A stretch of DNA of 64,000 nt from Acidithiobacillus sp. HP-2 (lineage in GTDB: Bacteria; Pseudomonadota; Gammaproteobacteria; Acidithiobacillales; Acidithiobacillaceae). The notes under the pieces are model-generated. The model was not told the origin of the DNA, ran no database searches, and saw nothing but the letters and a program-made list of their open reading frames with translations. Position numbers and translations under genes: made by a program. Below are positions 3,064 through 42,522 of this stretch, one piece after another (position 1 is the first letter of the stretch; every line of letters begins with the position of its first letter). The stretch covers positions 124,001 to 188,000 of the forward strand of contig NZ_JACKZA010000004.1 of assembly GCF_015100155.1 (NCBI RefSeq). The letters are read 5' to 3'.

Positions 3064-3091
3064 TGCCAAAGCGGAAACGGCTTGAGCAAAT

Positions 3092-3296
3092 GATCCTAAA
3101 AATGGCAGTTGCCGTGGGTGCTTTGCAGCGACTTTTGTTTCGAGCCGTTGTTGTTCTTGGCGAAATCCTGCGCCCGTCAGGAGAGCTGTTTGAGCCCGTA
3201 GGGCGAGTTCTCTCCTGACAGCAGGATGAGCCTTAGAACAACAGGCGAGGAACAACGGAGCAAAAAGCACCCACGGCAACTGCCGTTTTTAAGATC
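3092..3296. repeat. Palindromic intergenic element, copy 1 (multi-stem structure, unknown family)
   Basis: A 205-bp element filling the gap between the convergent Rrf2 and NFACT genes and touching the NFACT stop codon. Outer arms 3092-3124 and 3264-3296 are inverted repeats; 21 nt pair perfectly (3104-3124 with 3264-3284). Inside are CCGTTGTT/AACAACGG and GTTGTTC/GAACAAC, then a core hairpin: ATCCTGC and GTCAGGAGAG at 3165-3185 pair with CTCTCCTGAC and GCAGGAT at 3210-3227, capped by GCCC-gta-GGGC. A second copy at 17836-18035 keeps the core but has different, still complementary, outer arms. TTTTT follows the stem on both strands, so a bidirectional terminator is one possibility. Confidence 0.85.
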
Positions 3297-4842
3297 ACCC
3301 CTCATCGTGCGCGTCGCGGCGTACCCGAATAGTCTGAAAATGGCGGTAAATAACCTGACCCGGTCCAGCGCCGGGCTTACGTTGCACATGCCGGACTTCT
3401 GTCCAGTCCACTTCGGCACTGAATGCCCGTGACTGACTGTGTTGCAAGGCCAGGCGGGCAGCCGCTGCAATAACCTGTTCCGGGACCAGGGTACTGGTGT
3501 TTTCCCGGCGAAGAATCACATGACTTCCGCCCAGGTCCTGCACATGAAACCAGATATCCCAGTCTTTGGCGAAACGAAAGGTGAGGCGATCATTTTCCCG
3601 TGCATTATTTCCCCAAAAAATATCGAATCCCGCAATCATCGTGTGGTGAAAGGGCTCTGCCAACCCGCGCGCGCTTCGCTCCTGGTCCTTATGTCGAACG
3701 GGTGCATTTTGCGTTTGCGGAAGTCTCTGCGTCAGGAGGAGTGCCTCCTGTCCCCTGGACAGCAATTCGTCGAGCAGCTTTTCACTGTCCTGCAGGCGCT
3801 GCTGAATTTTCTGAACGGCACGTTGGCTGCGCAAGGCTTTCTGCATGTATTTCTGGGCTTGCTGGTGCAGCGACTTGCCTGGTGTGACAGCGATTTCCAG
3901 TATCCTGCCATCCCCATGGGTATGATCAGTAGCCTGAATGCTGGCGACTCGGGCGATGGCGTCCGGTACCGCAAACAGGGCAAAGGCCAATGTCCGATAG
4001 TATTCTGGGGCTTCCCATTGTTGCAGATCGTGACGCATTTTCTGGATGCGTTGGTGCAGGCGGTTTTTTTCTATGGCGAGTGCATGTTCCGCTGGCGATG
4101 GGGCCTGGGTAAGGGGGGAGGCAGGGAGTTGCAGGGCAACATCCGGGGATAAGGCCTGCATGGGCGGCCCGTCCGGCAAGCGCAGGGGATAAAGCAGATT
4201 TTGCCCCGCTTCGGTTTTTGCCTGCCACCAGGAGCTGGTAGCTGAACGCGCAGCCCATTGTTCCTGAATGAATGCTTGTGTTGCAGGGCTGCCGGGGCGA
4301 TAGCGCGGTGCCATACACTGTAACCAGATGGTCGGATCAGACCGGGATTCTTCAAAAGGACGGGCAGATTCTGGTGGATGGTAAACAATTCCCGGTAGAA
4401 AGCGGGGCACAGCAGGTCCATCAAGACTATCCCAACGCCAGGCCCAGCGAATTTGTTCCTGGGCATCCAGCAGGGCCAGATTGCCGCGCCCTCCGAAACA
4501 CTCGGCAATGAGACTGAGCTGATCTACCCGCTTGCTGATATGTATTCGGCTGAAGTCCAGGCGCACAATCCGGTCAGCCCAGGGAACGGCAATCCGTTCT
4601 ATCCGAAAGCTTTTGAGCCGCTGCTGAAGAAGGTTGCTCCAATGGCCCTGTTGTTCCTCTGGTGCTGCACTTTCCGGTGCCAGCCAGAGCCCCAGCGGTG
4701 TACGCTGAACCATGCAGGCCAAGGTCTGCTTGCCCGTGTGCAAGTGGAGGCCACCTGCTGCCGCACTGATTTTATGAATGCTTTGTCCTGCCAGCTGTTG
4801 CTGGAAAAATTGCGCAGCGGCGGCCAGTTGCAGTGTATCCAT
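3295..4842 (-). CDS. rqcH: NFACT family protein (RqcH/Rqc2/FbpA homologue)
   Basis: About 515 residues with an NFACT-N like N-terminal domain, a central helical coiled-coil part (roughly residues 260-400), and an NFACT-R domain near the C-terminus with DIWFHVQDLGGSHVIL. Bacterial RqcH binds stalled 50S-peptidyl-tRNA and adds alanine tails that mark unfinished chains for degradation. The start is placed at the ATG at 4842 (MDTLQLAAA), 11 bp after the sat-cysC stop; the open frame runs further upstream but that part lies inside sat-cysC and looks unlike the family. It is probably co-transcribed with sat-cysC. Its stop touches the palindromic element at 3092-3296. Confidence 0.8.
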   Translation of the reverse strand: MDTLQLAAAAQFFQQQLAGQSIHKISAAAGGLHLHTGKQTLACMVQRTPLGLWLAPESAAPEEQQGHWSNLLQQRLKSFRIERIAVPWADRIVRLDFSRIHISKRVDQLSLIAECFGGRGNLALLDAQEQIRWAWRWDSLDGPAVPRFLPGIVYHPPESARPFEESRSDPTIWLQCMAPRYRPGSPATQAFIQEQWAARSATSSWWQAKTEAGQNLLYPLRLPDGPPMQALSPDVALQLPASPLTQAPSPAEHALAIEKNRLHQRIQKMRHDLQQWEAPEYYRTLAFALFAVPDAIARVASIQATDHTHGDGRILEIAVTPGKSLHQQAQKYMQKALRSQRAVQKIQQRLQDSEKLLDELLSRGQEALLLTQRLPQTQNAPVRHKDQERSARGLAEPFHHTMIAGFDIFWGNNARENDRLTFRFAKDWDIWFHVQDLGGSHVILRRENTSTLVPEQVIAAAARLALQHSQSRAFSAEVDWTEVRHVQRKPGAGPGQVIYRHFQTIRVRRDAHDEG

Positions 4843-4853
4843 GGAGAGCGAAT

Positions 4854-6509
4854 TCAGCGGTCGGCTGCGGGGTCGCTTACGGCTCCCGAGCGGTGCAGCA
4901 AATCCATCAGGCATGCCAGGGCTGCTGCAGGCTCCTGCTGGGCGTGATTCACTACGCAATCCGGGTGTTCGGGTTCTTCGTAGGGATCATCTACGCCCGT
5001 AAATCCTTTGATTTCTCCGCGCAAAGCTTTGGCGTAAAGCCCTTTAGGGTCGCGTTCGGCACAGAGCGCCAAGGGTGTCGCTACATGTACCTCCAGAAAA
5101 AGTCCGCCCGCTTCTTCCACCAGGCGTCGGGCTTCGGCACGTGCCTGTCGATAAGGAGAAATGGCTGCTACCACCGCAATGCCGCCGTGACGTGCGACCA
5201 GACTGGCCACAAAACCAATACGGCGGATATTTTCATCGCGATCGTCGCGACTGAAGCTTAAGCCCTTGGACAGAAAACGGCGGATAATATCGCCGTCGAG
5301 CATGGTTACCGCACGTTCATCCTCCGCTTCGAGCTGTCGCACCAACATCCCCGCCAGCGTACTTTTGCCACTGGCGGAAAGGCCCGTAAACCAGATGACC
5401 AGCCCGCGTCGATCCGCGCCACGATAAGCCTGACGCAAAATTCTGATCACCTCCGGGGGGGAAAACCATTCGGGAATCTCTTCACGGTTGGCGAGCTTGC
5501 GGCGTAATTCGGTACCCGAGATGCCTGCCAGGGCTTCGCCATTGGCTTCGCTGACCGGGACATATTGCTGCCGGGTAGGGGAATAGGCGAATTCCGGAAG
5601 GAATATGCCGGAAATACCCATTTCCTGTGCGTGCCGGGCAAACAGTTCCTGGGCAGCAAAAGTGGGATAAAACAGGCCACCAACCGGCGCGCCAGGGTCT
5701 GCATGGCCCCGCCCGATAATGAAGTGGGTCGCACCAAAATTGCGCCGGATCAGAGCGTGCCACAGAGCTTCCCGAGGCCCAGCCATCCGCATGGCCAAGG
5801 GCAGGGGGGAAAGCAGTGCCCGCCCCTGCGGATAATGATCCAGAACGGCGCGATACACCCGCATGCGATAGGCGGCCTCTATGTCTCCGGGTTTGGTGGG
5901 CCCGATGGCGGGGTGCAGCAAGAGTTTGGCACCGGTTCCGGCCTGTTCAAGACCGGCCCGGGTGACGGCAATGTGGGCATGGTGCAGAGGATTGCGGGTC
6001 TGGAAGGCAACCACCGGATGCTGTTCCGTCCACTGTGCGCGCAACTGCGCGGGAGTCTGATATTCTGGCGGAAATTCTACCGCTGCAGCACGGCTGAGCG
6101 TCTGGGCATCCCAAGGTGTGACAGCACCTCCCACATACCAGGAACCCCGGCCAAACAGTTCTGCTACCCCGGGATGGTTTCTGTCCGCGCTGCCGTAAAC
6201 CGCCTCGGCCTCCAGTTTTTTGTCTGGTTGATAACACTCCGAGACCGTCAAGGCGGCGAGTGGTGTGCCGTCGCTGCGTTCCAGGCGCAAACGGTCACCC
6301 GCGCGCAAAGTAGTGCCCAGCGCATCCTCTACATCCAGCACGACGGGAATGGGCCAGAGTGTCCCATCCTGAAGGCGCATATTTTCCACCACCGATTGCC
6401 AGTTGGCCTGATCCAAAAAGCCTTTCAGTGGTGCAAAAGCTCCCGTCAGGAGCAACTCAAGATCACAACGCTGGCGCAGCGTCAGTACGTGTACGGCATC
6501 ATTTTTCAT
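4854..6509 (-). CDS. sat/cysC: Bifunctional sulfate adenylyltransferase / adenylylsulfate kinase
   Basis: A 551-residue fusion. The N-terminal ATP sulfurylase domain carries QTRNPLHHAH (residues 170-179, the HxxH nucleotide motif) and GRGHADPG (around 267-273). The C-terminal APS kinase has a P-loop GLSASGKS (376-383), LDGD near 404 and SRDDRDENIRRIGF. ATP sulfurylase makes APS from sulfate, or ATP and sulfate from APS in sulfur oxidisers; the kinase makes PAPS. Both active sites look intact, so the protein may serve assimilation, or link to cytoplasmic sulfite oxidation. It lies 10 bp downstream of the apt gene and ahead of the NFACT gene on the same strand. Confidence 0.93.
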   Translation of the reverse strand: MKNDAVHVLTLRQRCDLELLLTGAFAPLKGFLDQANWQSVVENMRLQDGTLWPIPVVLDVEDALGTTLRAGDRLRLERSDGTPLAALTVSECYQPDKKLEAEAVYGSADRNHPGVAELFGRGSWYVGGAVTPWDAQTLSRAAAVEFPPEYQTPAQLRAQWTEQHPVVAFQTRNPLHHAHIAVTRAGLEQAGTGAKLLLHPAIGPTKPGDIEAAYRMRVYRAVLDHYPQGRALLSPLPLAMRMAGPREALWHALIRRNFGATHFIIGRGHADPGAPVGGLFYPTFAAQELFARHAQEMGISGIFLPEFAYSPTRQQYVPVSEANGEALAGISGTELRRKLANREEIPEWFSPPEVIRILRQAYRGADRRGLVIWFTGLSASGKSTLAGMLVRQLEAEDERAVTMLDGDIIRRFLSKGLSFSRDDRDENIRRIGFVASLVARHGGIAVVAAISPYRQARAEARRLVEEAGGLFLEVHVATPLALCAERDPKGLYAKALRGEIKGFTGVDDPYEEPEHPDCVVNHAQQEPAAALACLMDLLHRSGAVSDPAADR

Positions 6510-6519
6510 GGGAATGTGT

Positions 6520-7089
6520 TCAGGCGCTTAGTGGAAAAACGGGCAGGTGGGCCAGAGCGATGACTTCTGCCCATTGCTCTGCATTGCCCTCGGTGCAAAT
6601 GGCGGCGACGACAGCGACTTCGGCTTCAGCCTGAGCCATTAGCGTGCGCATGGCCGCCAAAGTAGAGCCGGTACTCACCACATCATCCACCAGGGCTACC
6701 TGCCTGCCCTGAATCGCCGCGCGGTCCTTGGCATCCAGATACAGGGTCTGGGTTTTGCCGGTGGTAATGGACAGTGTCTCGGTCGATAACGCCTCACCCA
6801 TGTAGGATTTGTAATTTTTGCGAAGCACCACATAGGGGCGACCGCTATGCACGGACAGTGCATAAGCCAGTGGAATGCTCTTGGCTTCTGCGGTGACAAT
6901 CACATCAAAATCAATATCCGCCATGCGCTGTTGAAGGGCGGCAGCCGCAGCTTCGGTGAGCTCGGTATCACCAAGAATATTGAGGACAGCAATGGCTAAA
7001 TCCGGCTGTACCTTGAACAGGGGAAGGTGACGCTGTACCCCATTAATATTGAGAAGATGGCTGTTGGAATGGGAATCTGTGGGGTTCAT
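6520..7089 (-). CDS. apt: Adenine phosphoribosyltransferase family protein
   Basis: A 189-residue type I phosphoribosyltransferase. The PRPP-binding loop is VALVDDVVSTGSTLAAM, and the family strand-loop segments around FDVIVTAEAKSIPLAYALS and PYVVLRKNYKSYMGE match adenine/xanthine phosphoribosyltransferases. It would salvage a purine base with PRPP to give the nucleotide. The N-terminus (about 20 residues) is polar and less conserved. It is followed 10 bp later by sat-cysC and preceded, after 71 bp, by jetD on the same strand, so it may be transcribed with either. The exact base specificity cannot be read from the sequence. Confidence 0.82.
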   Translation of the reverse strand: MNPTDSHSNSHLLNINGVQRHLPLFKVQPDLAIAVLNILGDTELTEAAAAALQQRMADIDFDVIVTAEAKSIPLAYALSVHSGRPYVVLRKNYKSYMGEALSTETLSITTGKTQTLYLDAKDRAAIQGRQVALVDDVVSTGSTLAAMRTLMAQAEAEVAVVAAICTEGNAEQWAEVIALAHLPVFPLSA

Positions 7090-7160
7090 GAATGCTCCTT
7101 TTGCGACATTTTGCCACAGGGGGAGGGGGGTGGGTAGTTGGTAGGATGATCAGGCTAAGA

Positions 7161-8372
7161 TTAACTGGGGGAAGTGTCAGGATTGGGCGTGGTCATGTCA
7201 TCCAGCTGTTGAAGGTGGTCAGTCAGCCACTGGAAACCGATGTGTTCCTGTTCCAATCTGAGTCCAGGGCGAATGTGCGCGTCGCGCAGGTCATCGTAGA
7301 GGGATTGCTCTGCGCTTGTGAGTCGGTGCAGGTCAATCCGCAAGGGCTTGTCCTCACAGCCCCACAAGGCAGCGTGGGCATCCAGCGTGGCCCTGTCCAT
7401 CAGGAAAGAATCCACATGGTCAAAGTGGCCGCGAAGCTGATCCAGAATGCCAAAACCATGGGTGTCAATATCTCCCCAATAATGGATTTTGCATTTGTTA
7501 AGCCAATGACTACGAGCCAGTGCATCCCAACCATAACCTGCACCAAAAATCACGATGGCATGATGCATTGGTGGGAAGACCAGGAAGTTGGTCTCATTTT
7601 CCGTAATGAATACCCGCTGCACAGCGAGATCCAGGCGACTGAAGCTGTCCGCATCCAGCGTCACATCGGGTGATGACGAACCGGGCAAAAGACAAATATT
7701 GGGGTCCAGCACGCGAAAGCGAATGCGCGTCGGTTTTTCCAGGAAGCCATAGCGGGCGGCGAACTGGCTGATTCCGGTTTTGCTGGCGTCCACCACATTT
7801 GTCGGTAAGGCCAGGTCGAGTAACTCGGTGAGCACTCCGCGATGATTTTCGATGAATTTGCTGTGTACGCCTGGTAAATCCACCTGCCGCAAGTAGATGC
7901 CCGGGCGGGGATGTTCGACCAGCCAGGTCAGCACTGCCAACAGTCGGGGCCAATCGCTGGACAGCGCCAGCGCCTGGAGAGGACGTCTTTCCAGCCAGGG
8001 CAGCAAGGCGGGATGGGTTTGCCGGGTGACGGAAACCTGCTCCATAAAGCGGTCCCAATCTTTGCGCTTGCCCAGGCAATTCAGGGCATCTTCCAATGTC
8101 TCGACCCACACGCTAGCTGGCAGGTTCTGCGTGCCCTGAACGTGATGGCGAAGCGCCTGCCACTCCACCCGCACGAATTTGGTCGATGCCAATTCGGTGG
8201 CCCAGGCGCGCACTGCCTCAAAATGATTGGTGATGTCCGCCGAGTTGGGGGTCTTGAGAGCCAGGCGTAAAGGAAAACGCTCCCTGCCGGTCACTGCGTC
8301 CCGCAACAGTTCTCCGCGTTCCCAGAGCCGCATCAACTGCTTTTTCAATTGCTGCGGGTCAGTCCAGGTCAC
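7161..8372 (-). CDS. jetD: Wadjet anti-plasmid system protein JetD (DUF3322/DUF2220, Toprim nuclease)
   Basis: A 403-residue protein with an N-terminal DUF3322-like part and a C-terminal DUF2220 Toprim domain. The acidic motif [18 protein letters not shown] shows the DxDxxG pattern of the Toprim metal site. In Wadjet, JetD is the subunit that cuts plasmid DNA after the JetABC condensin complex has extruded and sized the circle. The ATG overlaps the jetC stop by 4 nt (ATGA), so translation is coupled. It is the last of four jet genes; apt follows after 71 bp. Confidence 0.9.
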
Positions 8373-11300
8373 GGCACTGACACCTGCACAGATTGGGCGG
8401 TCATGGCGGCTTTCTGCGCCCGATATTCTGCAATGGAGAGATTGCGGAGCTGCGAGGATCGCCCGCCCTCGTTATGAACGAATCCCACACTGGAAACAAA
8501 GGGTTCGATAATGTGGATTTTCTGCAGCGGAGTCACGATCAATAGTTGCAGGTTGAGTTGCTGGAATAATTTCAGGCCATATTGGGCAGATTCATCTGAA
8601 CCACGCCCGAAGGCCTCATCAATGACCACAAAACGGAAAGAACGGGAACGCACTGCGCCCCATTCCAGGCCAAACTGATAGGCCAAACTGGCTGCCAGGA
8701 TGGTATAGGCCAGTTTCTCCTTTTGTCCGCCCGACTTACCGCCGGAGTCCGAGTAATGCTCGTGCTCGCTGTTATCTTCCCGCCAGCGCTCACTGGCAGC
8801 GAAGAGGAACCAGTTACGTACATCGGTAACCTTGCTGGTCCAGCGTCGATCCTGCTCCGACAAACCCTCTCGGCCCCGGAAGCGGTCGATGATGGTTTTG
8901 ACCTGCAGGAACTTGGCCTCGGAATACTGGTTGTCGTCCGAACCGGTGACGGTACCCTCGGTGCAAGCGCGTAATTCCTGCTGGAAATCGCGGATTTCTG
9001 CATCGGGACTGGGCTGTGATTCAAGCACGATGTAACGGCCGGGATTGTAGTCGATCTCGCCCAGCGATTGGTTGATATGGGCAATACGTTCCTTGATGGT
9101 TTCACGCTCGCGGGCCAATTGGGCATTGAAATTGGCAATTTCGTTGATGGTGTTGACATTGAGCAGTTCTTTGAAGCGCGTCACAAAACGCGGCAGGTCG
9201 TCACGATTCAACTGGGTCAGCAGGTTTTCATATTCAAAAGCCGCATCAAGACTCGCATCGATCTCGGCGGTTTCGAGTTTGAACTGCTCTTTGAAGGAAA
9301 CCATGGCCTTGATGATTTTCTCAGCAAGATTTGCCAGTCGCCTTTGCTCGGCATCGAGTCGGTCCTGCAGCCATTTGCGTAGATCCTGCTCACGATTATC
9401 ACAAGACTCAATGCTGAGTTGGTGCTCACCCAGTGCTGCGGAGCGCATGGTTTCGAGCTTTGCCTGCAAGCTGTCGTCGATGCTCATATCCTGCAGCAGT
9501 GCTTCGGTTTGCTGACGCAACGCTTGCGCATCGGCGCGCCGCTGCTCTACTTTGGCACGTTTTTCGCGGGCTGCCTGCAGCGCTTCCCCCGTCTCTTTTT
9601 GCGTTTTCAGCAGGGTATGCAGGTTGTCGTTGAGCTGTTTGAGCACATCCGACGCGGATTCAAGCCGCTGGCGCTCATCCACCAGCTGGGCGATCTCGGT
9701 GGCGACGCTGGCCCAATCCAGTTCATCAAAGGCAGTGAATTCCTCAAGACGGGTCAGGGCATCAAGACGATCATTGAGCACATCACGTTCTTTCTGGATG
9801 GACGCAATCTGACTGCCAATTTCAGCCAGTTGCGCCTCAAGCTGGCGACGTCTGGCTTCCAGTGCGGCGATCTTCGCAGTATTGCTCCAGCCCAGCACAT
9901 AGCGGCTGCGATCATCAATGCGGTGACGGTCGTCCTTTTCATGCCGGCCACTTGGGTCTTTGATCTGCCCCGCGCGAGTGATGGCACGTGTTTCACGGCG
10001 AAACTGCTCTTGCGTACTGCAGCAGGCCACATCAAAGCGATGGGCCAGTTCGCGCTCCAGCCAGTCATAATAGGGCGAGTCGGGCTTGATGGTCAGTTTG
10101 CGGACCAGGGAATCCCGGTGCAGGTCCGGCAGTTCAGAGGTCTTGCGTGCGCGCACCTGAAAGTACACCAGGCGGCCACGCAGATGGGCCGCATCCACCC
10201 ACTCTGCCACTGCCTTGTAATGTACATCCGGCACCAGCAGCGCCAGACCGAAGCCGCGTAACAAGCGTTCGGCTGCGCCTTCCCAATCGCGTTCATCGTC
10301 ACGCACCTGGATCAACTCACCGATGAAAGGCATGTCATCCACATTCAGATTCAAAGCCGCACATAGGGCATCACGAATCTGGATCTGTTGATCATCGATG
10401 TTGCTGCGCCGCCGTTTGAGGCTGTCGATTTCCAGGCTTTGTTGGGCATGTTCCTGCTTGCCCTGGCGCATGGTTACGCCATATTCAGTGAGGGTGTTTT
10501 GCAGGTCGGCAGCGCTGTTGCGGGTTTCCTCCCGCCAGCTTTGATACTTGCCCCGTTGTACGGCGAAGTCGGCGGCCTCGTTGGCGGGTGCTTCGCCCAG
10601 TACGGCGGTCAGTTCCGCATAACGGGCAGCCTTGGCTTTGCGTACATCCCGCGACTTCTCTTTCTTGTGGATTTCGCTGGACAGCCATTCCAGTCGATCT
10701 CCACCGTTGGCATTGATGGCCTGCTTCAGTTCATCCACTTGCTGACCGTGCGCTTCATGTAACGCGCTCAGTTTTTGTATCTGGGCATCCACCCGATCCC
10801 AGTCTTCTGTCAGCGAACTCAGGCGTTTGTCGATCAGTCCGAGTTTCAGGCCAGCAAAATGGGAGCGCAGACCTTCCCGGCAGGCCCGCAAGCTGTCGGC
10901 CTCAGCCTGCATGGCCTTGTGGCGAACGCAGTCTGCGATCAGCGGCGTGAGTAGCTCCACCTGTTGGCGGGTTTTCAGTACAGCCTGATGGGCCTGGTTG
11001 AGATCATCAAAGTGACTGATCAAGTCTTGCAGGCGCTGGTCAACTGCAAAGGGTTCCAGCATATGGCTACGGACGAAGTCCGTCAGGTTACCTACCGATT
11101 TCATCGATACGGTCTGGTGGAACAATTCCAGCGCTTGATCGTTTTCAATACCGAAACGTCGACGAAACCATGCCGCATAGGGAGGAAAGCTGTCCTGTAA
11201 TTCTGCGCCCTTGGCGCGCAGATTTCTGCGCAATTGAGCGATGTCCGATCCGAATTGGGCGAAGTCGGCGGTAATGGACAGCGCCCCTTCCGCGCCCAGA

Positions 11301-11761
11301 AAAAACCGTGCGGGCTGCCCCTGGGAGTCTTTCATCCAGAACACCTGAGCCAGTGTCACCGTCTGGGCATAGCCGGCATTCTGGAATACGCCGAGAATGA
11401 CGGAGTAGCTATTTTGGTCCCGCAGGCTCACTGGTTTGGCTGCTCCGGTAATCTCATTGCGCTCGGATTTGTAATGCCCAAGCACATAAGAGCGCAGGGT
11501 GCGCTCCTTGTTGTCTGCTCCGGCTGCCTTGTTGTAGGCAACCCGGTTGGCAGGTACCAGCAGGGTAGTGATGGCATCCACCAAGGTGGATTTACCCGAA
11601 CCGATATCGCCGGTCAGCAGCCCGTTTTTGCCATCCAGTTGCAGCGTCCAGACCCGGCTGTCAAAGGTGCCCCAGTTAAACACTTCCAGCCTGGTCAGCC
11701 GGAATCCTGACAGGGTGTCATCAGCACAGAAGTCGAGGTCCAATAATTGTGGCTCATTCAT
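8369..11761 (-). CDS. jetC: Wadjet protein JetC, SMC/MukB-like ATPase
   Basis: A 1130-residue SMC-type ATPase. The Walker A GDIGSGKS lies near residues 51-58 just after the start, two long coiled-coil arms flank a hinge, and the C-terminal head holds the signature [14 protein letters not shown] and Walker [18 protein letters not shown]. It is the motor of the Wadjet complex, extruding DNA loops and recognising small circular plasmids. The ATG at 11761 ([11 protein letters not shown]) overlaps the jetB stop by 8 nt; the open frame extends to 11827, but those residues fall within jetB and are unlike the family. No frameshift or lost motif was seen. Confidence 0.93.
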
Positions 11762-12425
11762 GATCAGTTTCTTCCCTGCTGCCGGTCGTGCCAGCCAGTT
11801 GCTCCTGGTAACTGGCCAGACGTTCATCCAGTTCGGCTAGCCATTGAGCGTCTACAAAGGCCTTCAGAATACGTCGCACTTCATAATTGGCTGGTCCAGC
11901 GGTAGCACCACTGGCCGTTTTGAGTTTTTGTAGAAAGCCCAGTTCGACGACTTTGTTGATGGTGGTTTCAATCTGGTCAATCAGCCTGGCTTCATTCGGG
12001 CCATCGGGCAGAAATACCCGCACCAGATCCACGATGTTATCGCGGGACAGGACCAGTCGCGTGTCGCCCCCACCAGCGTCAAACTCGGCCAGTTTTTTGC
12101 GCAGCAAGGCAAGCAGTAAACTGACGGCAAAAGATAATGGCCGACGGGCCACCAGACGGGGTAAGCGCGGGGAGGGGTCATCCGCAGTCGGTTCGGGGCG
12201 GCTTTTCAGGAAGGCATAGCCTTCAGCCTCATCCAGTACCAGGTCGAGATTGAGCACGCCCACATAATCACGCACCCGCGCTTGCAGTTGCAACAGTGCG
12301 GCCCATTGGCGTTCGTCATTTTCACGATAGAGCACACCTTTGAGCAGGCCAATCAACAGCACCGACAAGTCAGCAGGCGGAGCAGCCGGTGTAGCCTGGG
12401 TTATGTTCAAATATTCCACTTCCAT
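11754..12425 (-). CDS. jetB: Wadjet protein JetB (DUF4194, MukE-like)
   Basis: A 223-residue protein between jetA and jetC. It has the DUF4194 features: a helical N-terminal half with [22 protein letters not shown] and a winged-helix C-terminal half that begins after [18 protein letters not shown]. It corresponds to the kite/MukE subunit that bridges JetA and the JetC heads. The stop overlaps the jetC start, and jetA ends 19 bp upstream. Assignment rests on gene order and on the sequence pattern together. Confidence 0.88.
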
Positions 12426-12444
12426 TTCTTGCCTCGATGCTTGT

Positions 12445-13902
12445 TCAGCGCATGAAAATCACGCGGGGTAGTCGCGCGCTGCGAATAAGTGTTTGCCCTT
12501 CCATATCTGTTGTCTGCCAGTGGATGGATTCAGTCGTGTCTTCATCCACTACGCTGCTGAATACTTCACTGCCCAACTGCAGGTAGGCAATTAATTCAGC
12601 TAGCCCTTGTTGCAAGGGCTGATTAGTGACCAGTTCGCGCAAGCTGATCTGGGTGTGGTTTTGCAAAGTGTTGCGAATATGACGGGTTAGCCGGGCCTTA
12701 TCAACGACGACCTGTTCAAAAAGCCTGGAGGGATCAATGTTTTCATCGCCAGCCTGGAGGATGATTTCGGTAATCATTGGTTTGCTGGCCGGAGTGAACA
12801 GTGGCCGTTCCATCGCCAGCACAACATCCGCGCTGGCCGCAGCCATTTCCATCACCGTGCCGGTCGGAGCGATGCTGCGGAGCGCCAGTGCCTTGCTTTC
12901 AATACCATGCAAAATATCCATGATGCGGCGGTTTTCCAGCCAGGCCTGGTCATCCAGAAAGCGGCGTAATTGCTGGGACAAGGCGGCGACGGTACGCTGG
13001 GTCTGTTCACCAGCTTCCATCCAGTCGTAGTGTACCCGGCGAGTCCGGGTGTCCGGGTTCAGTTCCGCCACAGCGGGTAGTGCCAGTACCTGATCCAGCA
13101 GATTGGTCAATTCTTCCTGCCGACGGCTGGATAACAGAAAATCCCAAAGGGCACGGAAACTCTTGCCCTGGTCGGAATCACCAATAGCATCGCGCTCACC
13201 CATGATGTCTTCCAGCAAATCCCCTTTGCTGCCCTCCCATAGCGCAATGCGTTCACGCACGCGGCGGTCCAGCTGGCGGAAGTTGTGCTCCACCTCACGA
13301 AAATCGGTGAGTAACTCGCGTGCGCCCTGCATGAATTGCTGAAAACGGTCCTTCACTGCCGTGTCATCCAGCAGTGATACCTCGCCCGCCAGCACCCTTG
13401 CAATTTCGGCATCAATGCCGTCACGCTTTTTGTGCAACTCGGCAATGCGTTTGGCAGGGTCGGCTTCGCTGCCCTCGCTCATCTGCTTGAGCAGGTCAAA
13501 GAGGGTAAGCAAGCGCGATTCGGTTCCGACAAATTGCCGTTCACTGAGTTGCGTCAACCAGGCAATAGCCTTTTCGGTAGCCGGGGTCAGATCAAACTGC
13601 GCCTCGTCCGTGCCCGTGCGGTAGAACTTGCGCAGCCAGCCCTTATCGGGTTCTGCCCAGTCGTTCAGGTATTCCAGTGCAGGTTTGGGGAATGCAGCCT
13701 CGCCCATATGCAGGCGTAGGGCATACAACTCATCTTCCAGTGCTTCGGCCAAATCCGCCGCTGCCATCACCCGCTCATTGGGCACTACGAATACCCGATG
13801 CAAAAAGCTTGCTATCAGCGGTGCATGATCTGAACGCAACAGGCGCCATGCGGGGTGATGGTTACGCAGACCGTCAAGGGTGGCGTAGTCGAGAGTTACC
13901 AA
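12445..13902 (-). CDS. jetA: Wadjet protein JetA (DUF3375, kleisin/MukF-like)
   Basis: A 485-residue DUF3375 protein, the kleisin-like subunit of the Wadjet complex. It starts with YATLDGLRNHHPAWRLLRSD, contains long helical stretches (for example RIAELHKKRDGIDAEIARVL), and ends with a small domain rich in charged residues before VIFMR. It heads the jetABCD operon; 64 bp upstream lies the vapC-type gene on the same strand. The four genes together match the type I Wadjet arrangement, which restricts plasmid transformation. All four reading frames are intact. Confidence 0.9.
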   Translation of the reverse strand: MVTLDYATLDGLRNHHPAWRLLRSDHAPLIASFLHRVFVVPNERVMAAADLAEALEDELYALRLHMGEAAFPKPALEYLNDWAEPDKGWLRKFYRTGTDEAQFDLTPATEKAIAWLTQLSERQFVGTESRLLTLFDLLKQMSEGSEADPAKRIAELHKKRDGIDAEIARVLAGEVSLLDDTAVKDRFQQFMQGARELLTDFREVEHNFRQLDRRVRERIALWEGSKGDLLEDIMGERDAIGDSDQGKSFRALWDFLLSSRRQEELTNLLDQVLALPAVAELNPDTRTRRVHYDWMEAGEQTQRTVAALSQQLRRFLDDQAWLENRRIMDILHGIESKALALRSIAPTGTVMEMAAASADVVLAMERPLFTPASKPMITEIILQAGDENIDPSRLFEQVVVDKARLTRHIRNTLQNHTQISLRELVTNQPLQQGLAELIAYLQLGSEVFSSVVDEDTTESIHWQTTDMEGQTLIRSARLPRVIFMR

Positions 13903-13966
13903 GTATTACAAACCTCATTTTCGTACTTAAACAATGTCGGCAAGTTTCCAGCATGATTTTTTGAAT

Positions 13967-14386
13967 TCATTGCTTGCCCGTTCCGGATGCCGGGCTTACC
14001 AGACTGACCCCGGAGAAATATGTGGAGTATCGCTGCCTGTCACGGGTCAGCACGGGGCAGCCAGCCACGGCAGCATGGGCGCCGATGAAGAAGTCGGCAA
14101 GCACGTTGTTTTTCTTTCCTCCCTGCCGGCGGTAGCGCACGAAGGCCTTGCCAGCCAGGAACAGCGCGGGCCGGGGAATCTCGAGCATCGTCAGACCCAG
14201 TTCAGCGACAGTGCGATCCAGGGCTTCGACCGTCGAGAACGTCAACGACAGTTCGGCATAGATGATCGGATTGATGACCAGGCGATGAATTTTGGACTGC
14301 GCCCGTAGCTGGCCGATGGACCAGTCCGCCCATTCCGGATCGTCCTCCAGAACGTCGACCAGCACATTGGTATCGACCAGCAGCAT
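13967..14386 (-). CDS. vapC: PIN-domain toxin, VapC family
   Basis: A 139-residue PIN-domain ribonuclease. The first acidic residue is in MLLVDTNVLVDVLED, the second region is NPIIYAELSLTF, and the third acidic cluster is LADFFIGAHAAVAG followed by LTRDRQRYSTYF. VapC toxins usually cut initiator tRNA or rRNA loops. The partner antitoxin gene ends 3 bp upstream, typical of a coupled toxin-antitoxin operon. The pair lies immediately upstream of jetABCD on the same strand, so it is part of the same defence cluster and may share its transcript. Confidence 0.88.
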   Translation of the reverse strand: MLLVDTNVLVDVLEDDPEWADWSIGQLRAQSKIHRLVINPIIYAELSLTFSTVEALDRTVAELGLTMLEIPRPALFLAGKAFVRYRRQGGKKNNVLADFFIGAHAAVAGCPVLTRDRQRYSTYFSGVSLVSPASGTGKQ

Positions 14387-14389
14387 CAG

Positions 14390-14626
14390 TTATTCACCGC
14401 GCAGCAGGGCCATCAATTCATCGGTGCGCCACTTTACGTCGGCCCTGCCACGGGCTATCTCGAAGCGATCCGGCTTGCGGCTGGGCCGGGCACCGACCTT
14501 GTGAATAACGACATCGCCTTCGCGATTGACCGCGAAATCAACAGAGCAGCCCGGCGCGAGATTCAGTGCGTCGCGAATCTGCTTGGGGATGGTGACCTGT
14601 CCCTTGCTGGTGAGTGTGGTTGCCAT
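14390..14626 (-). CDS. vapB: AbrB/MazE-type antitoxin (VapB-like)
   Basis: A 78-residue protein with the swapped-hairpin AbrB DNA-binding fold: LTSKGQVTIPKQIRDALNL followed by GCSVDFAVNREGDVVIHK. The C-terminal tail (residues 48-78) is charged and would wrap the PIN toxin. It precedes vapC by 3 bp. A ribosome site AGGAG lies ahead of the ATG. Such antitoxins usually repress their own promoter, expected within 14627-14744. Confidence 0.87.
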   Translation of the reverse strand: MATTLTSKGQVTIPKQIRDALNLAPGCSVDFAVNREGDVVIHKVGARPSRKPDRFEIARGRADVKWRTDELMALLRGE

Positions 14627-14744
14627 TTGATGACTCCTGACGTATTACGGTATCCGCGATTGTAATACTACCAAGACACGACGGCAATTTCCGAAAATTC
14701 GCAGCGCCCGTGAAGCCCTGCCACTGCTGGCCCTTCGCGGGCGT

Positions 14745-14772
14745 AAAAAAACCCGGAGCATGTCCGGGCTTT
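14745..14772 (-). terminator. Rho-independent terminator after tRNA-Ala
   Basis: On the minus strand a GC-rich hairpin with stem AGCCCGG/CCGGGTT is followed by a run of T residues (the A run at 14745-14751 on the plus strand). It begins 8 nt after the CCA end of tRNA-Ala and should end that transcript. Confidence 0.8.
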
Positions 14773-14779
14773 GGAATGT

Positions 14780-14855
<76 letters not shown>

Positions 14856-14937
14856 ATGAGCGCAAAGGATAAAGAGAAGCCTCGCGGAATGCAATGCTTG
14901 TAAACTGCTGGCAGGGCTAGGTGTCAGTTTTTGCTGC

Positions 14938-15945
14938 TCAGCAGCGCCCCACCACCATTACATCGCTGCCAAACGGGAAAATTTCTGGCCTTAGTCCGGC
15001 TTCTTTTAAGGCGCTGGCGATTTCCTCAGGATGCAGGAAATGATTCCCTTGGACATGCTCGGTGAGATTCTGGTAAGCCATGCCCCGCAAGGGTGCTTCG
15101 CGCAGGCGACGATGATCATCTGGCCATGCGGGTTCCCAAATGACTACGGCGCCTTCTGCTTTGAGATTGCTGCGCAGTTTGTCAAAAATGGCCCCACGTT
15201 TTTCCCAGACATGGTGAAGGGCACGATTCATGGCAATCAGATCTGCCGGTTCTGGCAGAGAAAACGCGTGGATGTCGCCCTCCGAAAAGTGCAGACGGTC
15301 ACCCAGACCCTCCTGTTGGGCTGTTTCCTGGGCCTGTCGCACATTTTCCGCAAAACCATCCAAACCTAGGCCCCGCAAATGGTTGCAGCGCTGTGCCAGT
15401 GCCCGTAAATACCAGCCATTTCCGCAACCGAGATCCACAGCAAGACCACCCCGGGCATCTACTTCGGCAAATATGGGAACCTGCGGGCAGATTTTTTCTT
15501 CAAAAGTCTTGCGGAAATTGTTTTCCAGCATCAGCCCAAACCAGGGCAGAATGGTTTCCCGTTCCGCCAGTACTTTTTCACCCGGACGTTCGCCCGTGCG
15601 CATCAGTCCTGCGGCGCGTTCAGCCATATGTGCCGACAGGACCGAACCAATAGCTGTTGCCATGCGGCTACCCGGAGCCTCGGGGCGCATGCTGTCGCCA
15701 TCTGCGCTGAGTTGCCACTGATCGTCGGAATTCAGTTCCAGCCAGCCAAAAGCATAAGCAGCATCGCACCAGCGGGTGACGTATCCTTCGTCCATGCCCG
15801 CTTGCTGAGCGAGACGTCGGGAATCAGCCTTCTGCAGTTGGTGCAGGGCACTGAACAGTCCATTGACGACACCTATGAAAGCAATATTCAGGGATTGTGC
15901 GCCCTGAGCCTGCTGCCTGAGTTCTTCCATGCTGCGTAAAGTCAT
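14938..15945 (-). CDS. Class I SAM-dependent methyltransferase with N-terminal winged-helix-like domain
   Basis: A 335-residue protein. Residues 1-100 look like the dimerisation/winged-helix domain of small-molecule O-methyltransferases (VNGLFSALHQLQ, MDEGYVTRWCDAAYAFGWLEL). The Rossmann domain starts with the SAM motif I AVDLGCGNGWYLRALAQ, then LRGLGLDGFAENVRQAQE and FSEGDIHAFSLPEPADLIAMNRALHHVWEKRG. The substrate is not evident. AAGGAG precedes the ATG. It lies 24 bp after a TauE/SafE exporter gene on the same strand, so the two are probably one operon. Confidence 0.8.
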   Translation of the reverse strand: MTLRSMEELRQQAQGAQSLNIAFIGVVNGLFSALHQLQKADSRRLAQQAGMDEGYVTRWCDAAYAFGWLELNSDDQWQLSADGDSMRPEAPGSRMATAIGSVLSAHMAERAAGLMRTGERPGEKVLAERETILPWFGLMLENNFRKTFEEKICPQVPIFAEVDARGGLAVDLGCGNGWYLRALAQRCNHLRGLGLDGFAENVRQAQETAQQEGLGDRLHFSEGDIHAFSLPEPADLIAMNRALHHVWEKRGAIFDKLRSNLKAEGAVVIWEPAWPDDHRRLREAPLRGMAYQNLTEHVQGNHFLHPEEIASALKEAGLRPEIFPFGSDVMVVGRC

Positions 15946-15969
15946 GTGGTCTCCTTGTCGCTCGATGCG

Positions 15970-16731
15970 TTAAATAAGGTATTTCAGGCCGACTACGGTC
16001 AGTAATCCCAATGTGCCTAATAAAAAAGCGCGTTGGTTGATACGTAGGTGTAAACGATTACCCGCCCAGAGACCCAGCAAAACTGGCGGAATCAACATTA
16101 AAAAACCTATGGCCAGCTGCCAGGTCAACAGCGCCAGGGCTACATACATGAACCCGCGCAACACATTGTCTGTGAGCGCAATCCCCTGAAAAGTGGCGCG
16201 AAAAGCGCGTTTGTCCAGATGCCGCATTTGCAGGTAGGCGACGATAGGTGGTCCACCCCCACCGTAGAGGCTGCCCACGACTCCCCCAAATATACCGAGC
16301 GGTGTGCCCCAGGGCAGACTGATGCGCGGCAGACGATCGGGCTTCATGGCAAGGGCGTACACCACGTAGGCGAGAATGAATACACCGAGGAATCGGGTCA
16401 GATTTTGGGCATTGGTATCAGCCAGTATGAAAGAACCGATTGCCAGACCAATGATGCTGCCGGGGATCAGCCAGCGTAACTCCGGCCAGCGCATTTCCCG
16501 AAAATCATAGGCACCCAGTAATACTGAACCGAGCAGATCCAGAAGCAATACGACTGGCACGACTTCCTTGATGGGAAATATAAGCGTGAGCAAGGCCACG
16601 GAAATTAGCCCGGAACCAAATCCGATCACTGCCCGGACGTAAAAAGCCAGGAGAATAATGAATCCGGCGATGGCCCAGAGGAGGGGGGAATGGATGAGGG
16701 TGGCATAAGAAAGGGACGCGTGTAAGTTCAT
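15970..16731 (-). CDS. Sulfite exporter TauE/SafE family membrane protein
   Basis: About 253 residues and around eight hydrophobic helices. The family's repeated motif is seen as FYVRAVIGFGSGLISVALL and, in the second half, GTPLGIFGGVVGSLYGGGGPPIVAYLQM. Members export sulfite, sulfoacetate or other organosulfur anions, a plausible need in a sulfur oxidiser, though the substrate is not proven. The ATG at 16731 (MNLHASLSY) was preferred over the open frame up to 16806, whose extra residues are basic and unlike a first transmembrane helix. It precedes the methyltransferase gene by 24 bp. Confidence 0.8.
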   Translation of the reverse strand: MNLHASLSYATLIHSPLLWAIAGFIILLAFYVRAVIGFGSGLISVALLTLIFPIKEVVPVVLLLDLLGSVLLGAYDFREMRWPELRWLIPGSIIGLAIGSFILADTNAQNLTRFLGVFILAYVVYALAMKPDRLPRISLPWGTPLGIFGGVVGSLYGGGGPPIVAYLQMRHLDKRAFRATFQGIALTDNVLRGFMYVALALLTWQLAIGFLMLIPPVLLGLWAGNRLHLRINQRAFLLGTLGLLTVVGLKYLI

Positions 16732-16894
16732 ACCGACCAGTCTATAAGTTTTGAGGAGTGTCTTCCAGATGCTGGGAATGCCCCGCTTCCAAGCAACTGC
16801 GCACATATAGGCATTTCAGAAAAAATAGCCTAATATGAAACTATCCTGAGAAATTGCTTTAACCTTGCATCCCGTTAAGGGGGAGGGCTAACCC

Positions 16895-17842
16895 ATGCTG
16901 CCGCATCCATCTGCAAATACTGCACCGATCACATATCGTTCCTACCGGCTTCATTTATGGTTCCTGGGCCTGTTTATATTGGGATGGACGTTCATTTTGG
17001 GTATTCCTGCTGCCCGCGCCAATACCAACAGCAGTGGTTTGCCGCCCATTGATGCCCGCGCTTATATTTTGATGAATGCCCAAACCGGTGCCATCATCGC
17101 CGCTAAAAATGCTTACCAACCCTATGCAATTGCCAGCATTACCAAGCTCATGACCTTGTATCTGCTGTTTAAGGACATTCACGCTGGTGGGTTGCAGTTG
17201 CACCAGGAGTTTGTACCCTGTCAGGCAGCACTGGAAACCGGTGGTTCCAGCATGTTCATGCATCCCGGATTGCGCTTTTCAGTAGCCCAGATGATTTTGG
17301 GAATGACAGTTCCTTCAGGAAACGACGCTGCCGTTGAAGCTGCGCATCTGGTGGCTGGCAGTGTCCCGGCCTTTGTGCATGAAATGAACCAGACGGCGCG
17401 TAAAATCGGTATGTTATCGACAACCTATTTTGATCCGGACGGCCTTCCCCATCCCAATAACACCGCCAGTCCCTATGATATCGCTATTCTCACCAGGCGA
17501 ATCATGACGGACTTTCCGCAATATATGCATTTTTTCAATCATGAGAATTTCACTTACGCAGGCATTACCAGTCCCAATCCTAACTTGCTGGTAGGTCGTG
17601 TGCCTTTCATCACCGGCATGAAAAGCGGTTATACCGACGCTGCTGGTCATTGCCTGGTGGCTACGGGCACCCAAAATGGAGTGCAACTCATTGCCGTGAT
17701 TCTGGGGGTTCCTTCATTTACCGATGAAAACCGTGGTTTCTGGAAGGCCTCCTGGCAAAGTCTCAAATTGCTCGACTGGGGTTTTGCCAGAACGCTCTGG
17801 CTGCCTGCCGTACCCCATCTGGAAAAAACCTCGGCACCCTGA
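16895..17842 (+). CDS. D-alanyl-D-alanine carboxypeptidase/endopeptidase (peptidase S11, PBP7-like)
   Basis: A 315-residue periplasmic penicillin-binding protein with an N-terminal signal segment (residues 20-42, ending ARA). All three active-site motifs are present: SITK (Ser81, Lys84), SGN (141-143) and KSG (243-245). It trims or cleaves peptidoglycan stem peptides. It is shorter than DacA-type enzymes (about 400 residues) and lacks their C-terminal beta domain, so it resembles PbpG. The ATG follows GGGGGAGGG. The last codons form part of the left arm of the palindromic element that starts at 17836. Confidence 0.87.
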   Translation: MLPHPSANTAPITYRSYRLHLWFLGLFILGWTFILGIPAARANTNSSGLPPIDARAYILMNAQTGAIIAAKNAYQPYAIASITKLMTLYLLFKDIHAGGLQLHQEFVPCQAALETGGSSMFMHPGLRFSVAQMILGMTVPSGNDAAVEAAHLVAGSVPAFVHEMNQTARKIGMLSTTYFDPDGLPHPNNTASPYDIAILTRRIMTDFPQYMHFFNHENFTYAGITSPNPNLLVGRVPFITGMKSGYTDAAGHCLVATGTQNGVQLIAVILGVPSFTDENRGFWKASWQSLKLLDWGFARTLWLPAVPHLEKTSAP

Positions 17843-18035
17843 AACGGCGGTGGGCCGGGAAGCTTTGCCGCGACTTTGGCCCGCGCCGTTGTTGTTCTTG
17901 GTGAAATCCTGCGCCCGTCAGGAGAGCTGTCTGAGCCCACAGGGCGAGTTCTCTCCTGACAGCAGGATGAGCCTTGGAACAGCAGGCAAGGGACGTTGGC
18001 GCAAAAAGCTTCCCGGCCCACCACCGTTTCAGGGT
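17836..18035. repeat. Palindromic intergenic element, copy 2 (multi-stem structure, unknown family)
   Basis: A 200-bp relative of the element at 3092-3296, again exactly between two convergent genes, reaching from the last codons of the carboxypeptidase gene to the stop codon of the emrB-like gene. Outer arms 17836-17866 and 18005-18035 pair over 31 nt with a single mismatch, but their sequence differs from copy 1. The inner core (GTCAGGAGAG/CTCTCCTGAC, ATCCTGC/GCAGGAT, apical GCCC-aca-GGGC) is almost identical. An additional GCGCC/GGCGC stem replaces the CCGTTGTT stem of copy 1. The changes in one arm are matched in the other. Confidence 0.85.
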
Positions 18036-19567
18036 TACTCCTGTACGGGTGGCGGAGTATTTTCTCCCTTTTCTGGAGCTGGCTTCTTGAGAAATAAAAT
18101 CAGCGGAATCATCACCAGAAAACCGTAAAATACCAGCACAAATGCATCGAGGGTGCCGCGCATGTTGGCCTGATTATACAGAACAACATTACCCAGAATC
18201 TGCCAGGTAGTCGGATTCTGGGTCATCCCAGCCGCTGCCAGATATTGGTGAAACGCCGGATTGAAGGGGTTGATGAACTTACTCATCTGGTTCCAGCCCA
18301 CTTGTGTTTCCTGACTCATGACGGTAGACACAATAGCGATGCCGACACTGCCACCGAGGGTTCTCATCAAATTGAAAATTCCCGACCCCTCTGCCTGCTG
18401 TGATTTCTTGAGGGTTGTAAAAGCCAGGGTAAACAGGGGAATAGTCACCAGGCCAAAGCCTATGCCGCGAATAAAGCTGGGCCAGATCACCCACTGTATA
18501 TTGATATTGAGGTTGTAAAGGGTGGTGAGGTAGGTTCCAAAAGCGCCGATTACAATACCGACCAGCACAATATCGCGGGGATTGATCCCCTTGCCGAGCA
18601 GGCGGCCAGCCAGCATCATCGCCAGCATTGCGCCGATTCCTTGAGGCGCCATAGCCAGTCCGGCCGTAAAGGCCTCATAGTGCATCAAAGTCTCCAGCAT
18701 GATGGGCAAAATCACCATGGTGCCAAACAGGGCGAGACCGAATATGCCGATTCCCATGCTGCCAATAGCCAGATTGCGGTCTTTGAGGAGCCGCAAGTCG
18801 ACAACCGGATGCTTGACACTCAGGGAACGCCACACAAAAAAGAGCAGCCCAAGGATGGTAATCAAAGTCAGGATGATGATGGTTTGTGAACTGAACCAGT
18901 CATCCTGATCCCCGAGGCTGAGAATGCCTTGCAGAGACCCCAAACCCAGGGCCATCAGCGCAAATCCAGTCCAGTCCACGGGCCGGGGGTTTGCGCTTTT
19001 GCCGCCGTCCGGCACGCTTTGCATCAGTAAAAAGGCGAGAATCCCAAAGGGAATGTTGACGTAAAACACCCAGCGCCAACTGAGCGTGTCCGTCAGATAA
19101 CCACCCAGAGTCGGTCCCAGAATCGGTCCCAGCATGATGCCCATACCGAGAATCGCCATGGCCTGACCGCGTTTATTGGCCGGATAGGCTCCGAGCATGA
19201 TGGTTTGCCCGACAGGTGCCAGGGACGCCCCGAAAATGCCCTGAAGAAAGCGCCAGAGGACAATCTCGGTAAGACTGTGGGATTGTCCGCATAGAGCCGA
19301 AGAAATCACGAATCCCACTACACTCCAAAGCATGATGTTGCGTTGTCCGTAACGTTCCACCAGAAGGCCGGTAAGGGGGAGTACAATGACGTTGGCCACC
19401 ATATAAGCGGTGAGCACCCAGGTGATCTGATCGCTATTGGCCTGCAGGGAGCCACGCATATAGGTCAGTGCCACATTGACAATGGTGAGATCCAGAACCT
19501 GCATCACTACTGCAAGCATGACCGCCACGGTGATGACCAGACGGGATGTAGACTGCTCTTGCGCCAC
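18035..19567 (-). CDS. DHA2 family MFS multidrug efflux permease, EmrB/QacA type
   Basis: A 510-residue, 14-helix major facilitator. DHA2 hallmarks are visible: LDLTIVNVALTYMRGSL in helix 1, VLTAYMVANVIVLPLTGLLVERYGQRN (motif A) and GPILGPTLGGYL (motif C). It exports drugs or other hydrophobic compounds by proton antiport. The start is GTG at 19567 with AAGGAG 9 nt upstream. There is no EmrA adaptor gene next to it. A promoter with a TetR-style operator lies at 19604-19650. The stop codon abuts palindromic element copy 2. Confidence 0.88.
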   Translation of the reverse strand: MAQEQSTSRLVITVAVMLAVVMQVLDLTIVNVALTYMRGSLQANSDQITWVLTAYMVANVIVLPLTGLLVERYGQRNIMLWSVVGFVISSALCGQSHSLTEIVLWRFLQGIFGASLAPVGQTIMLGAYPANKRGQAMAILGMGIMLGPILGPTLGGYLTDTLSWRWVFYVNIPFGILAFLLMQSVPDGGKSANPRPVDWTGFALMALGLGSLQGILSLGDQDDWFSSQTIIILTLITILGLLFFVWRSLSVKHPVVDLRLLKDRNLAIGSMGIGIFGLALFGTMVILPIMLETLMHYEAFTAGLAMAPQGIGAMLAMMLAGRLLGKGINPRDIVLVGIVIGAFGTYLTTLYNLNINIQWVIWPSFIRGIGFGLVTIPLFTLAFTTLKKSQQAEGSGIFNLMRTLGGSVGIAIVSTVMSQETQVGWNQMSKFINPFNPAFHQYLAAAGMTQNPTTWQILGNVVLYNQANMRGTLDAFVLVFYGFLVMIPLILFLKKPAPEKGENTPPPVQE

Positions 19568-42487: not shown

Positions 42488-42522
42488 GCAAAAAGCTTCC
42501 CGGCCCACCGCCGTGTTCAGGG
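42488..42522. repeat. Solo right arm of the palindromic element (partial copy 3)
   Basis: About 35 bp matching the right outer arm of the element at 17836-18035 (GCAAAAAGCTTCCCGG then CCCACC and CCGT), with one substitution and one inserted base. The core hairpin and the left arm are absent from this 203-bp gap between folD and the RND permease gene, which here are in the same orientation. It ends 37 bp before the RND stop codon. Confidence 0.6.

What the first reader, a model, noticed from the sequence alone, without database searches (positions are those of the whole stretch)
3092..18035. Undescribed ~200-bp palindromic element at two convergent gene junctions, with covarying arms
The copies 3092-3296 and 17836-18035 share an almost identical core hairpin (about 63 nt, including GTCAGGAGAG/CTCTCCTGAC) and flanking text. 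Their outer arms differ in sequence yet each is self-complementary: 21 nt perfect in copy 1, 30 of 31 nt in copy 2. A second inner stem also changes in a compensatory way (CCGTTGTT/AACAACGG versus GCGCC/GGCGC). Such matched changes imply that the folded form is selected or that arms are copied by strand switching. Each copy fills the whole gap between two stop codons. Options: a bidirectional terminator, a structured antisense or small RNA, a non-autonomous mobile element (MITE/REPIN-like) that settles in 3' ends.
Basis: seen in the sequence. Interest (0 to 1): 0.82.

Follow-up and report, generated by a model that had tools for sequence, protein, structure and literature searches.

The report
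Stop-codon-seeking mobile palindrome that flips
The two long hairpins are copies of an apparently undescribed, roughly 200-letter hitch-hiking DNA element that lands on gene ends in acid-loving bacteria; its matching arms are best explained by DNA copying between the arms, which also turns the middle around, rather than by selection on a folded RNA.

Summary
The hairpins belong to a dispersed family: 48 covariance-model hits in the own genome, hits in 8 of 39 relatives. It is a non-autonomous transposable element (MITE): terminal repeats CCTRAAAACGGC, 5-bp target duplications (z 8.4; 16 of 61 perfect), and clean empty sites in sister species, including for window copy 1 (8 of 20 fetched). Ends (14-17 of 19 bases) and target WTNAW resemble those of IS1380-family insertion sequences of the genus. 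WTNAW contains a stop triplet, so insertion at a gene end duplicates the stop codon; both window copies sit this way on their right side.

The covarying arms are real, but evidence favours DNA template switching over RNA selection. At orthologous loci the core is inverted in 23 of 34 pairs, with both orientations at 18 of 24 loci. Arms share matched insertions and diverge faster than the core yet stay paired. Terminator activity is not shown. A weak G-U excess in the core (p about 0.05) leaves room for an RNA role. Limited paper searches found no description.

The parts
3090..3094 (.). left copy of the 5-bp target duplication of copy 1 (ATGAT)
   Evidence: sister species G003 and G010 have one ATTAT here and no element
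3095..3121 (+). left terminal inverted repeat / outer arm of copy 1 (CCTAAAAATGGCAGTTGCCGTGGGTGC)
3122..3266 (+). conserved core of copy 1, 145 nt, long hairpin; inverted at the orthologous locus of genome G004
   Evidence: inversion (L021 vs L212)
3267..3293 (+). right terminal inverted repeat of copy 1
3294..3298 (.). right copy of the target duplication (ATCAC, decayed, 3 of 5 match); holds the stop codon of the minus-strand gene (TCA, 3295-3297)
17833..17837 (.). left target duplication of copy 2 (GGCAC, decayed, 3 of 5 match)
17838..17863 (+). left terminal inverted repeat of copy 2 (CCTGAAACGGCGG...); its TGA at 17840-17842 is the stop codon of the upstream gene
17864..18007 (+). conserved core of copy 2, 144 nt, second subfamily
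18008..18033 (+). right terminal inverted repeat of copy 2
18034..18038 (.). right target duplication of copy 2 (GTTAC); holds the stop codon of the minus-strand gene (TTA, 18035-18037)
42488..42514 (+). relic: right arm only of a third copy

Best explanation
The hairpins are copies of a ~200-bp MITE, probably moved by an IS1380-type transposase. It inserts at WTNAW sites and duplicates 5 bp. Because WTNAW always contains TNA (TAA or TGA on one strand or the other), an insertion at a gene end leaves a complete stop codon on that side; the terminal repeat CCTRA can also supply one. Copies therefore accumulate at gene ends, convergent ones above all, with little damage to the genes. Once in place, the long inverted-repeat arms act as templates for each other during replication. 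Such template switching makes the arms complementary, with locus-specific sequence, and inverts the core between them. Shown here: dispersed family, target duplications, empty sites, stop-codon placement, arm matching, matched insertions, core inversion between species. Inferred: the IS1380 transposase acting in trans, template switching as the process, and weak or no selection on the fold.
For: Copies: 48 hits in the own genome, hits in 8 of 39 relatives. Target duplication: 5-mer identity 0.613 vs 0.431 shuffled, z 8.4, no signal at 4 or 6 bp. Clean empty sites, 8 of 20 stretches fetched: L022 in G004 and G010, L024 in G004, L020 in G003 and G010, L071 in G010, window copy 1 in G003 and G010. 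IS1380 relation: ends match 14-17 of 19 bases; a complete IS in L157 is flanked by ATGAT twice and its transposase is best matched by NF033539 IS1380 (E 1.3e-43, 149 bits, below the curated cut-off of 180); WTNAW at 14 of 16 perfect duplications and 12 of 13 hand-copied flanks of IS-like ends, vs 1.6% of all 5-mers of the window. Placement: 30 of 61 copies at convergent junctions, which hold 19% of intergenic bases (p 6e-8); stop codon at target positions 2-4 in 14 of 75 facing gene ends, anywhere in the target in 23 of 75. Template switching: core inverted in 23 of 34 orthologous pairs, both orientations at 18 of 24 loci (forward identity 0.88-0.99, reverse 0.56-0.66); 6 of 18 loci inverted between G000 and G004; matched insertions in both arms at L003/L109 and L081/L118; in the 71 more diverged of 101 copies own-arm pairing 0.931 vs 0.645 with shuffled partners (0.952 vs 0.915 in the other 30), and arm/core/flank divergence 0.132/0.056/0.070.
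Against: No IS1380 copy with ends identical to the MITE was found. IS1380 does not track the MITE: G001 and G016 carry the MITE but gave no PF13701 match, and G014 has PF13701 matches but no MITE hit. Only 16 of 61 duplications are perfect, 15 of the 16 in one subfamily, and some of these are orthologues of one locus. Of 20 fetched stretches 11 lack the element but are too changed to be clean empty sites and one holds a remnant; none is a clean empty site for window copy 2. Arms also show unmatched change: of 918 compared pair positions 139 differ on one side, 68 on both sides with pairing kept, 35 on both sides without (ungapped). Common wobble states in the core are G-U in 5 of 5 cases while rare ones are balanced (13 vs 15; p 0.049), a hint of RNA-level selection on one strand. 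The orthologous pairs are not independent. No experiment was available.
Confidence: 0.82

Rival explanations
1. Selected bidirectional transcription terminator or mRNA 3'-end stabiliser: the arms covary because the RNA hairpin is needed by both convergent genes.
For: Placement next to stop codons and at convergent junctions. One subfamily has A-tract/T-tract ends around a G+C stem. A remnant in G004 leaves a small hairpin with a T-tract (L199).
Against: Arms show matched insertions and core inversions, and no G-T over A-C bias (29 vs 28; use of both strands would hide such a bias). The simple terminator scan, limited to loops of 3-8, finds 2 sites per region against 0.7-0.8 by chance, only one of them inside an element. 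Sister species lack the element at orthologous sites. 3' enrichment is also expected from the target preference and from harm elsewhere.
Confidence: 0.3
2. Structured non-coding RNA with a conserved core and a variable closing stem.
For: Core similar in all copies with conserved bulges; strong covariation; common wobble states all G-U on one strand (p 0.049).
Against: No Rfam match; between orthologues the core diverges about as much as flanking sequence (0.056 vs 0.070); it flips relative to its neighbours; copy number, target duplications and empty sites are those of a mobile element.
Confidence: 0.12
3. A site-specific recombinase, not template switching, inverts the core.
For: High inversion frequency; core borders (GCTTTGC / GCAAAAAGC) are conserved inverted motifs.
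Against: Arms differ between loci, so there is no shared crossover site outside the core border; it would not explain the matched insertions in the arms. No search for recombinase genes was made.
Confidence: 0.12
4. The flips are assembly artefacts of a repeated palindrome.
For: Most assemblies are fragmented and some contigs end in or near copies.
Against: Arms of 25-33 bp are shorter than reads (general knowledge); G004 is one contig and shows 6 of 18 flips against G000; flips occur among several assemblies and at loci with unusual arms (L006/L113, L097/L011).
Confidence: 0.05

Closest known systems
Bacterial MITEs in general, e.g. ERIC, Correia and RUP elements (recalled; of PMC2229807 and PMC3049150 only the listing with the start of the abstract was seen)
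   Same: short, many copies, terminal inverted repeats, target duplication, intergenic, palindromic
   Different: ends and 5-bp WTNAW target of IS1380 type; arms locus-specific yet complementary; core orientation flips at orthologous loci (not compared with ERIC or others here)
IS1380-family insertion sequences (NF033539 / PF13701) of Acidithiobacillus
   Same: terminal repeat 14-17 of 19 bases, WTNAW target, 5-bp duplication
   Different: no transposase gene in the MITE; interiors were not compared
Template switching between short inverted repeats in yeast (PMC8604942: first of seven parts of the text and passages read)
   Same: arm homogenisation and spacer inversion, reported there as joint outcomes
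   Different: there arms of 7-16 bp and inverted spacers of a few bases in genes; here 25-33 bp arms and a ~145-nt spacer, repeated at many bacterial loci
Template switching that creates and maintains RNA hairpins (PMC8794818: abstract and start of introduction read)
   Same: multi-base compensatory changes without stepwise selection
   Different: there RNA genes; here a dispersed mobile element with core inversion as a second signature
Small flip-flop inversions at chloroplast hairpins (PMC12928735: passages, citing Kim and Lee 2005)
   Same: loop between inverted repeats inverts recurrently
   Different: 5-50 bp plastid inversions, not a mobile family

Membership tests
MITE (non-autonomous DNA transposon) | many dispersed copies, no transposase gene | tested here: met
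   longest closed ORF inside copy 1 is 38 aa and inside copy 2 is 28 aa
MITE (non-autonomous DNA transposon) | terminal inverted repeats and target-site duplication of fixed length | tested here: met
   5 bp, z 8.4, 16 of 61 perfect
MITE (non-autonomous DNA transposon) | empty sites with a single target copy | tested here: met
   8 of 20 fetched stretches
IS1380-mobilised MITE | ends and target shared with an autonomous IS | tested here: inconclusive
   14-17 of 19 bases, WTNAW, 5 bp; no IS with identical ends, and IS1380 presence does not track the MITE
IS1380-mobilised MITE | transposase moves the element in trans | not testable with these tools
   needs an experiment
Template switching between inverted-repeat arms | spacer inversion with unchanged flanks | tested here: met
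Template switching between inverted-repeat arms | multi-base matched changes in both arms | tested here: met
   L003/L109, L081/L118 (indels read by eye)
REP/REPIN with RAYT transposase | GTAG/CGTC-type tag at the hairpin foot | tested here: not met
   any one tag and side in at most 6 of 103 copies; tag known from recall and a title listed; RAYT genes not searched
Intrinsic bidirectional terminator | terminates transcription from both sides | not testable with these tools
   scan weak; no RNA data
Known structured RNA family | Rfam gathering-score match | tested here: not met
   only three tRNAs in the window

The most novel reading that the evidence does not exclude
The element is a self-maintaining invertible module. 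Its core is an RNA hairpin functional on one strand, and frequent arm-mediated flipping, without any dedicated recombinase, switches which of the two convergent genes receives the functional strand in its 3' end.
Probability: 0.1. Interest if true: 0.85.

Novelty: new variant of a known kind. Interest (0 to 1): 0.6.

Why it matters
The family is a natural replicate experiment. Two dozen loci compared between related bacteria show arm homogenisation together with spacer inversion, the two joint outcomes of template switching. It warns that strong base-pair covariation, often taken as proof of a functional RNA, can arise at the DNA level; inversion of the loop at orthologous sites is a simple check. 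A target that contains a stop triplet is a neat way for a mobile element to insert into gene ends with little harm.

Tried and rejected
Known RNA family: Rfam found only tRNAs. Core as the mobile unit inserted into pre-existing terminator loops: rejected, because the duplications lie outside the arms, one subfamily shares its arms at many loci, and clean empty sites lack the arms. Short forms as ancestors: by eye, L035/L103 and L037/L141 look like core deletions at orthologous loci. An IS1380 copy with ends identical to the MITE was sought by pattern in the own genome and not found. One regular expression for IS end flanks matched nothing; the 13 flanks counted were copied by hand (L167 left out as a twin of L166; L168 and L171 are ends of uncertain identity).

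Rows dropped: of 166 blast pieces, 150 were over 120 nt; 22 lacked one of the two anchors and duplicates were removed, leaving 110, of which 59 have cores of 144 nt, 42 of 145 and 9 other lengths, some by mis-set anchors. Of the 110, 61 had recognisable ends and 101 entered the arm test. In one search, 27 of 30 own loci and 35 of 36 fetched G004 loci could be parsed; G004 has 56 hits in all; two further loci matched by one flank only, both flipped, are not counted. Orthologous copies of one locus are counted separately, and gene calls there are crude ORF calls. The ungapped comparison over-counts unmatched changes where arms differ in length. The G-U test was prompted by the table. The model search reported 9 of 40 genomes including the own one.
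Full report
What is there. The two palindromes exist as described, with arms of 34 nt (94% complementary) and 31 nt (97%) and folding z-scores of -13.0 and -10.5. Both lie between convergent ORFs. Rfam has no match. A blast search of the own genome found 30 long matches (115 nt or more) and shorter ones. A covariance model from 26 copies gave 48 hits in the own genome and hits in 8 of 39 relatives: in all, 7 of 17 genomes of the genus, the own one included, and two genomes of a second genus of the family. An exact-pattern scan of 84,980 species genomes returned 82 stretches, all titled Acidithiobacillus: A. sulfurivorans, A. concretivorus, A. marinus, A. montserratensis and a MAG labelled A. 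ferrivorans. That scan needs an exact 28-nt match, so distant relatives would be missed.

It is a mobile element. With copies cut at their terminal repeats (CCTRAAAACGGC...), the flanking 5-mers match in direct orientation: identity 0.613 against 0.431 for shuffled partners, z 8.4, with 16 of 61 perfect and no signal at 4 or 6 bp; 15 of the 16 belong to the 145-nt subfamily. I removed 11 elements and one target copy in silico and searched 17 genomes of the genus. Of 20 stretches fetched, 8 are clean empty sites: L022 in G004 and G010, L024 in G004, L020 in G003 and G010, L071 in G010, and window copy 1 in G003 and G010 (there the target reads ATTAT). Eleven lack the element but are too changed to be clean, and at the L020 locus G004 keeps a 30-odd-bp remnant hairpin. 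No clean empty site was seen for window copy 2.

Likely partner. Guided by the 5-bp AT-rich target, which I recalled for IS1380, I searched PF13701 in 11 genomes. The Acidithiobacillus elements found end in CCTAAAAACAGCAGTTACC and similar, 14-17 of 19 bases like the MITE. The complete copy in L157 is flanked by ATGAT twice, and its protein's best NCBIfam match is IS1380 (E 1.3e-43, 149 bits, under the 180-bit cut-off). WTNAW fits 14 of 16 perfect MITE duplications and 12 of 13 flanks of IS-like ends, against 1.6% of 5-mers in the window. Against this, G001 and G016 have the MITE without a PF13701 match, and G014 has PF13701 without the MITE. A genus-wide IS survey reports IS1380 as rare and its main text has no occurrence of 'MITE' (PMC10214660, passages). 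That the transposase moves the MITE is inferred.

Stop codons. Every WTNAW contains TNA, i.e. TAA or TGA on one strand; the 16 perfect duplications all hold such a triplet. Facing gene ends have their stop codon exactly at target positions 2-4 in 14 of 75 cases and somewhere in the target in 23 of 75. Both window copies show this on their right side; copy 2's left gene uses the TGA inside the terminal repeat. By crude ORF calling, 30 of 61 copies lie at convergent junctions, which make up 19% of intergenic bases (p 6e-8); another crude count gave 40 convergent, 44 tandem, 11 divergent and 1 unclear, with a median of 9 nt from stop codon to element.

Why the arms covary. Covariation is strong: 97.3% of cells paired (90.0% in shuffles) and 115 two-sided changes against 32.6, 105 of the 115 in the two outer helices. 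Selection on a fold is one explanation; arm-to-arm copying is another. Four results bear on this. (a) Inversion: among 34 pairs of orthologous copies with both flanks matched, the core is inverted in 23; 18 of 24 loci show both orientations; core identity is 0.88-0.99 forward and 0.56-0.66 reversed. Between G000 and G004, 6 of 18 loci are inverted, window copy 1 among them. (b) Matched insertions: TAG/CTA in L003 against L109, and 4-5 nt in both arms of L118 against L081. (c) Arms diverge more (0.132) than core (0.056) or flanks (0.070), yet in the 71 diverged copies own-arm pairing is 0.931 against 0.645 with another copy's arm (0.952 against 0.915 in the other 30). (d) Arm mismatches are G-T 29, A-C 28, other 42, no sign of one-strand RNA selection, although use of both strands would hide it. 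Spacer inversion and arm homogenisation are joint outcomes of template switching in yeast (PMC8604942), and template switching can maintain RNA hairpins (PMC8794818). Not everything fits: of 918 pair positions compared between orthologues, 68 changed on both sides with pairing kept, but 139 changed on one side and 35 on both without pairing, partly because the comparison was ungapped.

Function. Termination is plausible from the T-tracts of one subfamily, but the scan gave 2 terminator-like sites per region against 0.7-0.8 by chance, with one inside copy 1. In the core (129 distinct sequences), common wobble states are all G-U (5 of 5), rare ones are balanced (13 G-U, 15 A-C; Fisher p 0.049, one uncorrected test prompted by the data). 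This is a hint, not a result.

Novelty. Searches for Acidithiobacillus with palindromic/intergenic repeats (11 papers listed), Acidithiobacillus with MITEs (none), IS1380 with MITE (10 of 1,021 listed) and Acidithiobacillus with IS1380 (3 listed) showed no description in listings or passages. Subscription papers are not in the library. The element type and the mutational process are known; their combination, with a stop-triplet target, appears new.

Noticed in passing
L028, L030/L031, L106, L128, L139 (left junction); L031, L139, L173 (right junction): An IS110-family element (NF033542 RNA-guided transposase, E 4.5e-90) sits at exactly the same position of the palindrome core (GAGCCTTA | TTAGAACAAC) in copies of two genomes; IS621 is reported to do so in E. 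coli REPs (title in the reference list seen). By eye its non-coding end holds stretches resembling both junctions.
   Followed up: partly
L135 against L002 and L072: One copy in a MAG joins the left flank of one locus to the right flank of another: recombination between copies, or a chimaeric assembly.
   Followed up: no
L034, L035, L036, L037, L199: Short derivatives that lost the core but keep matched arms; L037 arms differ from those of L141 on both sides.
   Followed up: partly
L166, L167, L169, L170: Stretches of IS1380 left end without the rest of the IS, about 145-150 bp in three of the four.
   Followed up: no
core pairs, alignment of 129 distinct cores: Common wobble states are G-U only (5 of 5) while rare ones are balanced.
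   Followed up: partly
L142 against L013: The palindrome extends several bases past the terminal repeat into the flank, where the direct target repeat is replaced by an inverted one.
   Followed up: no
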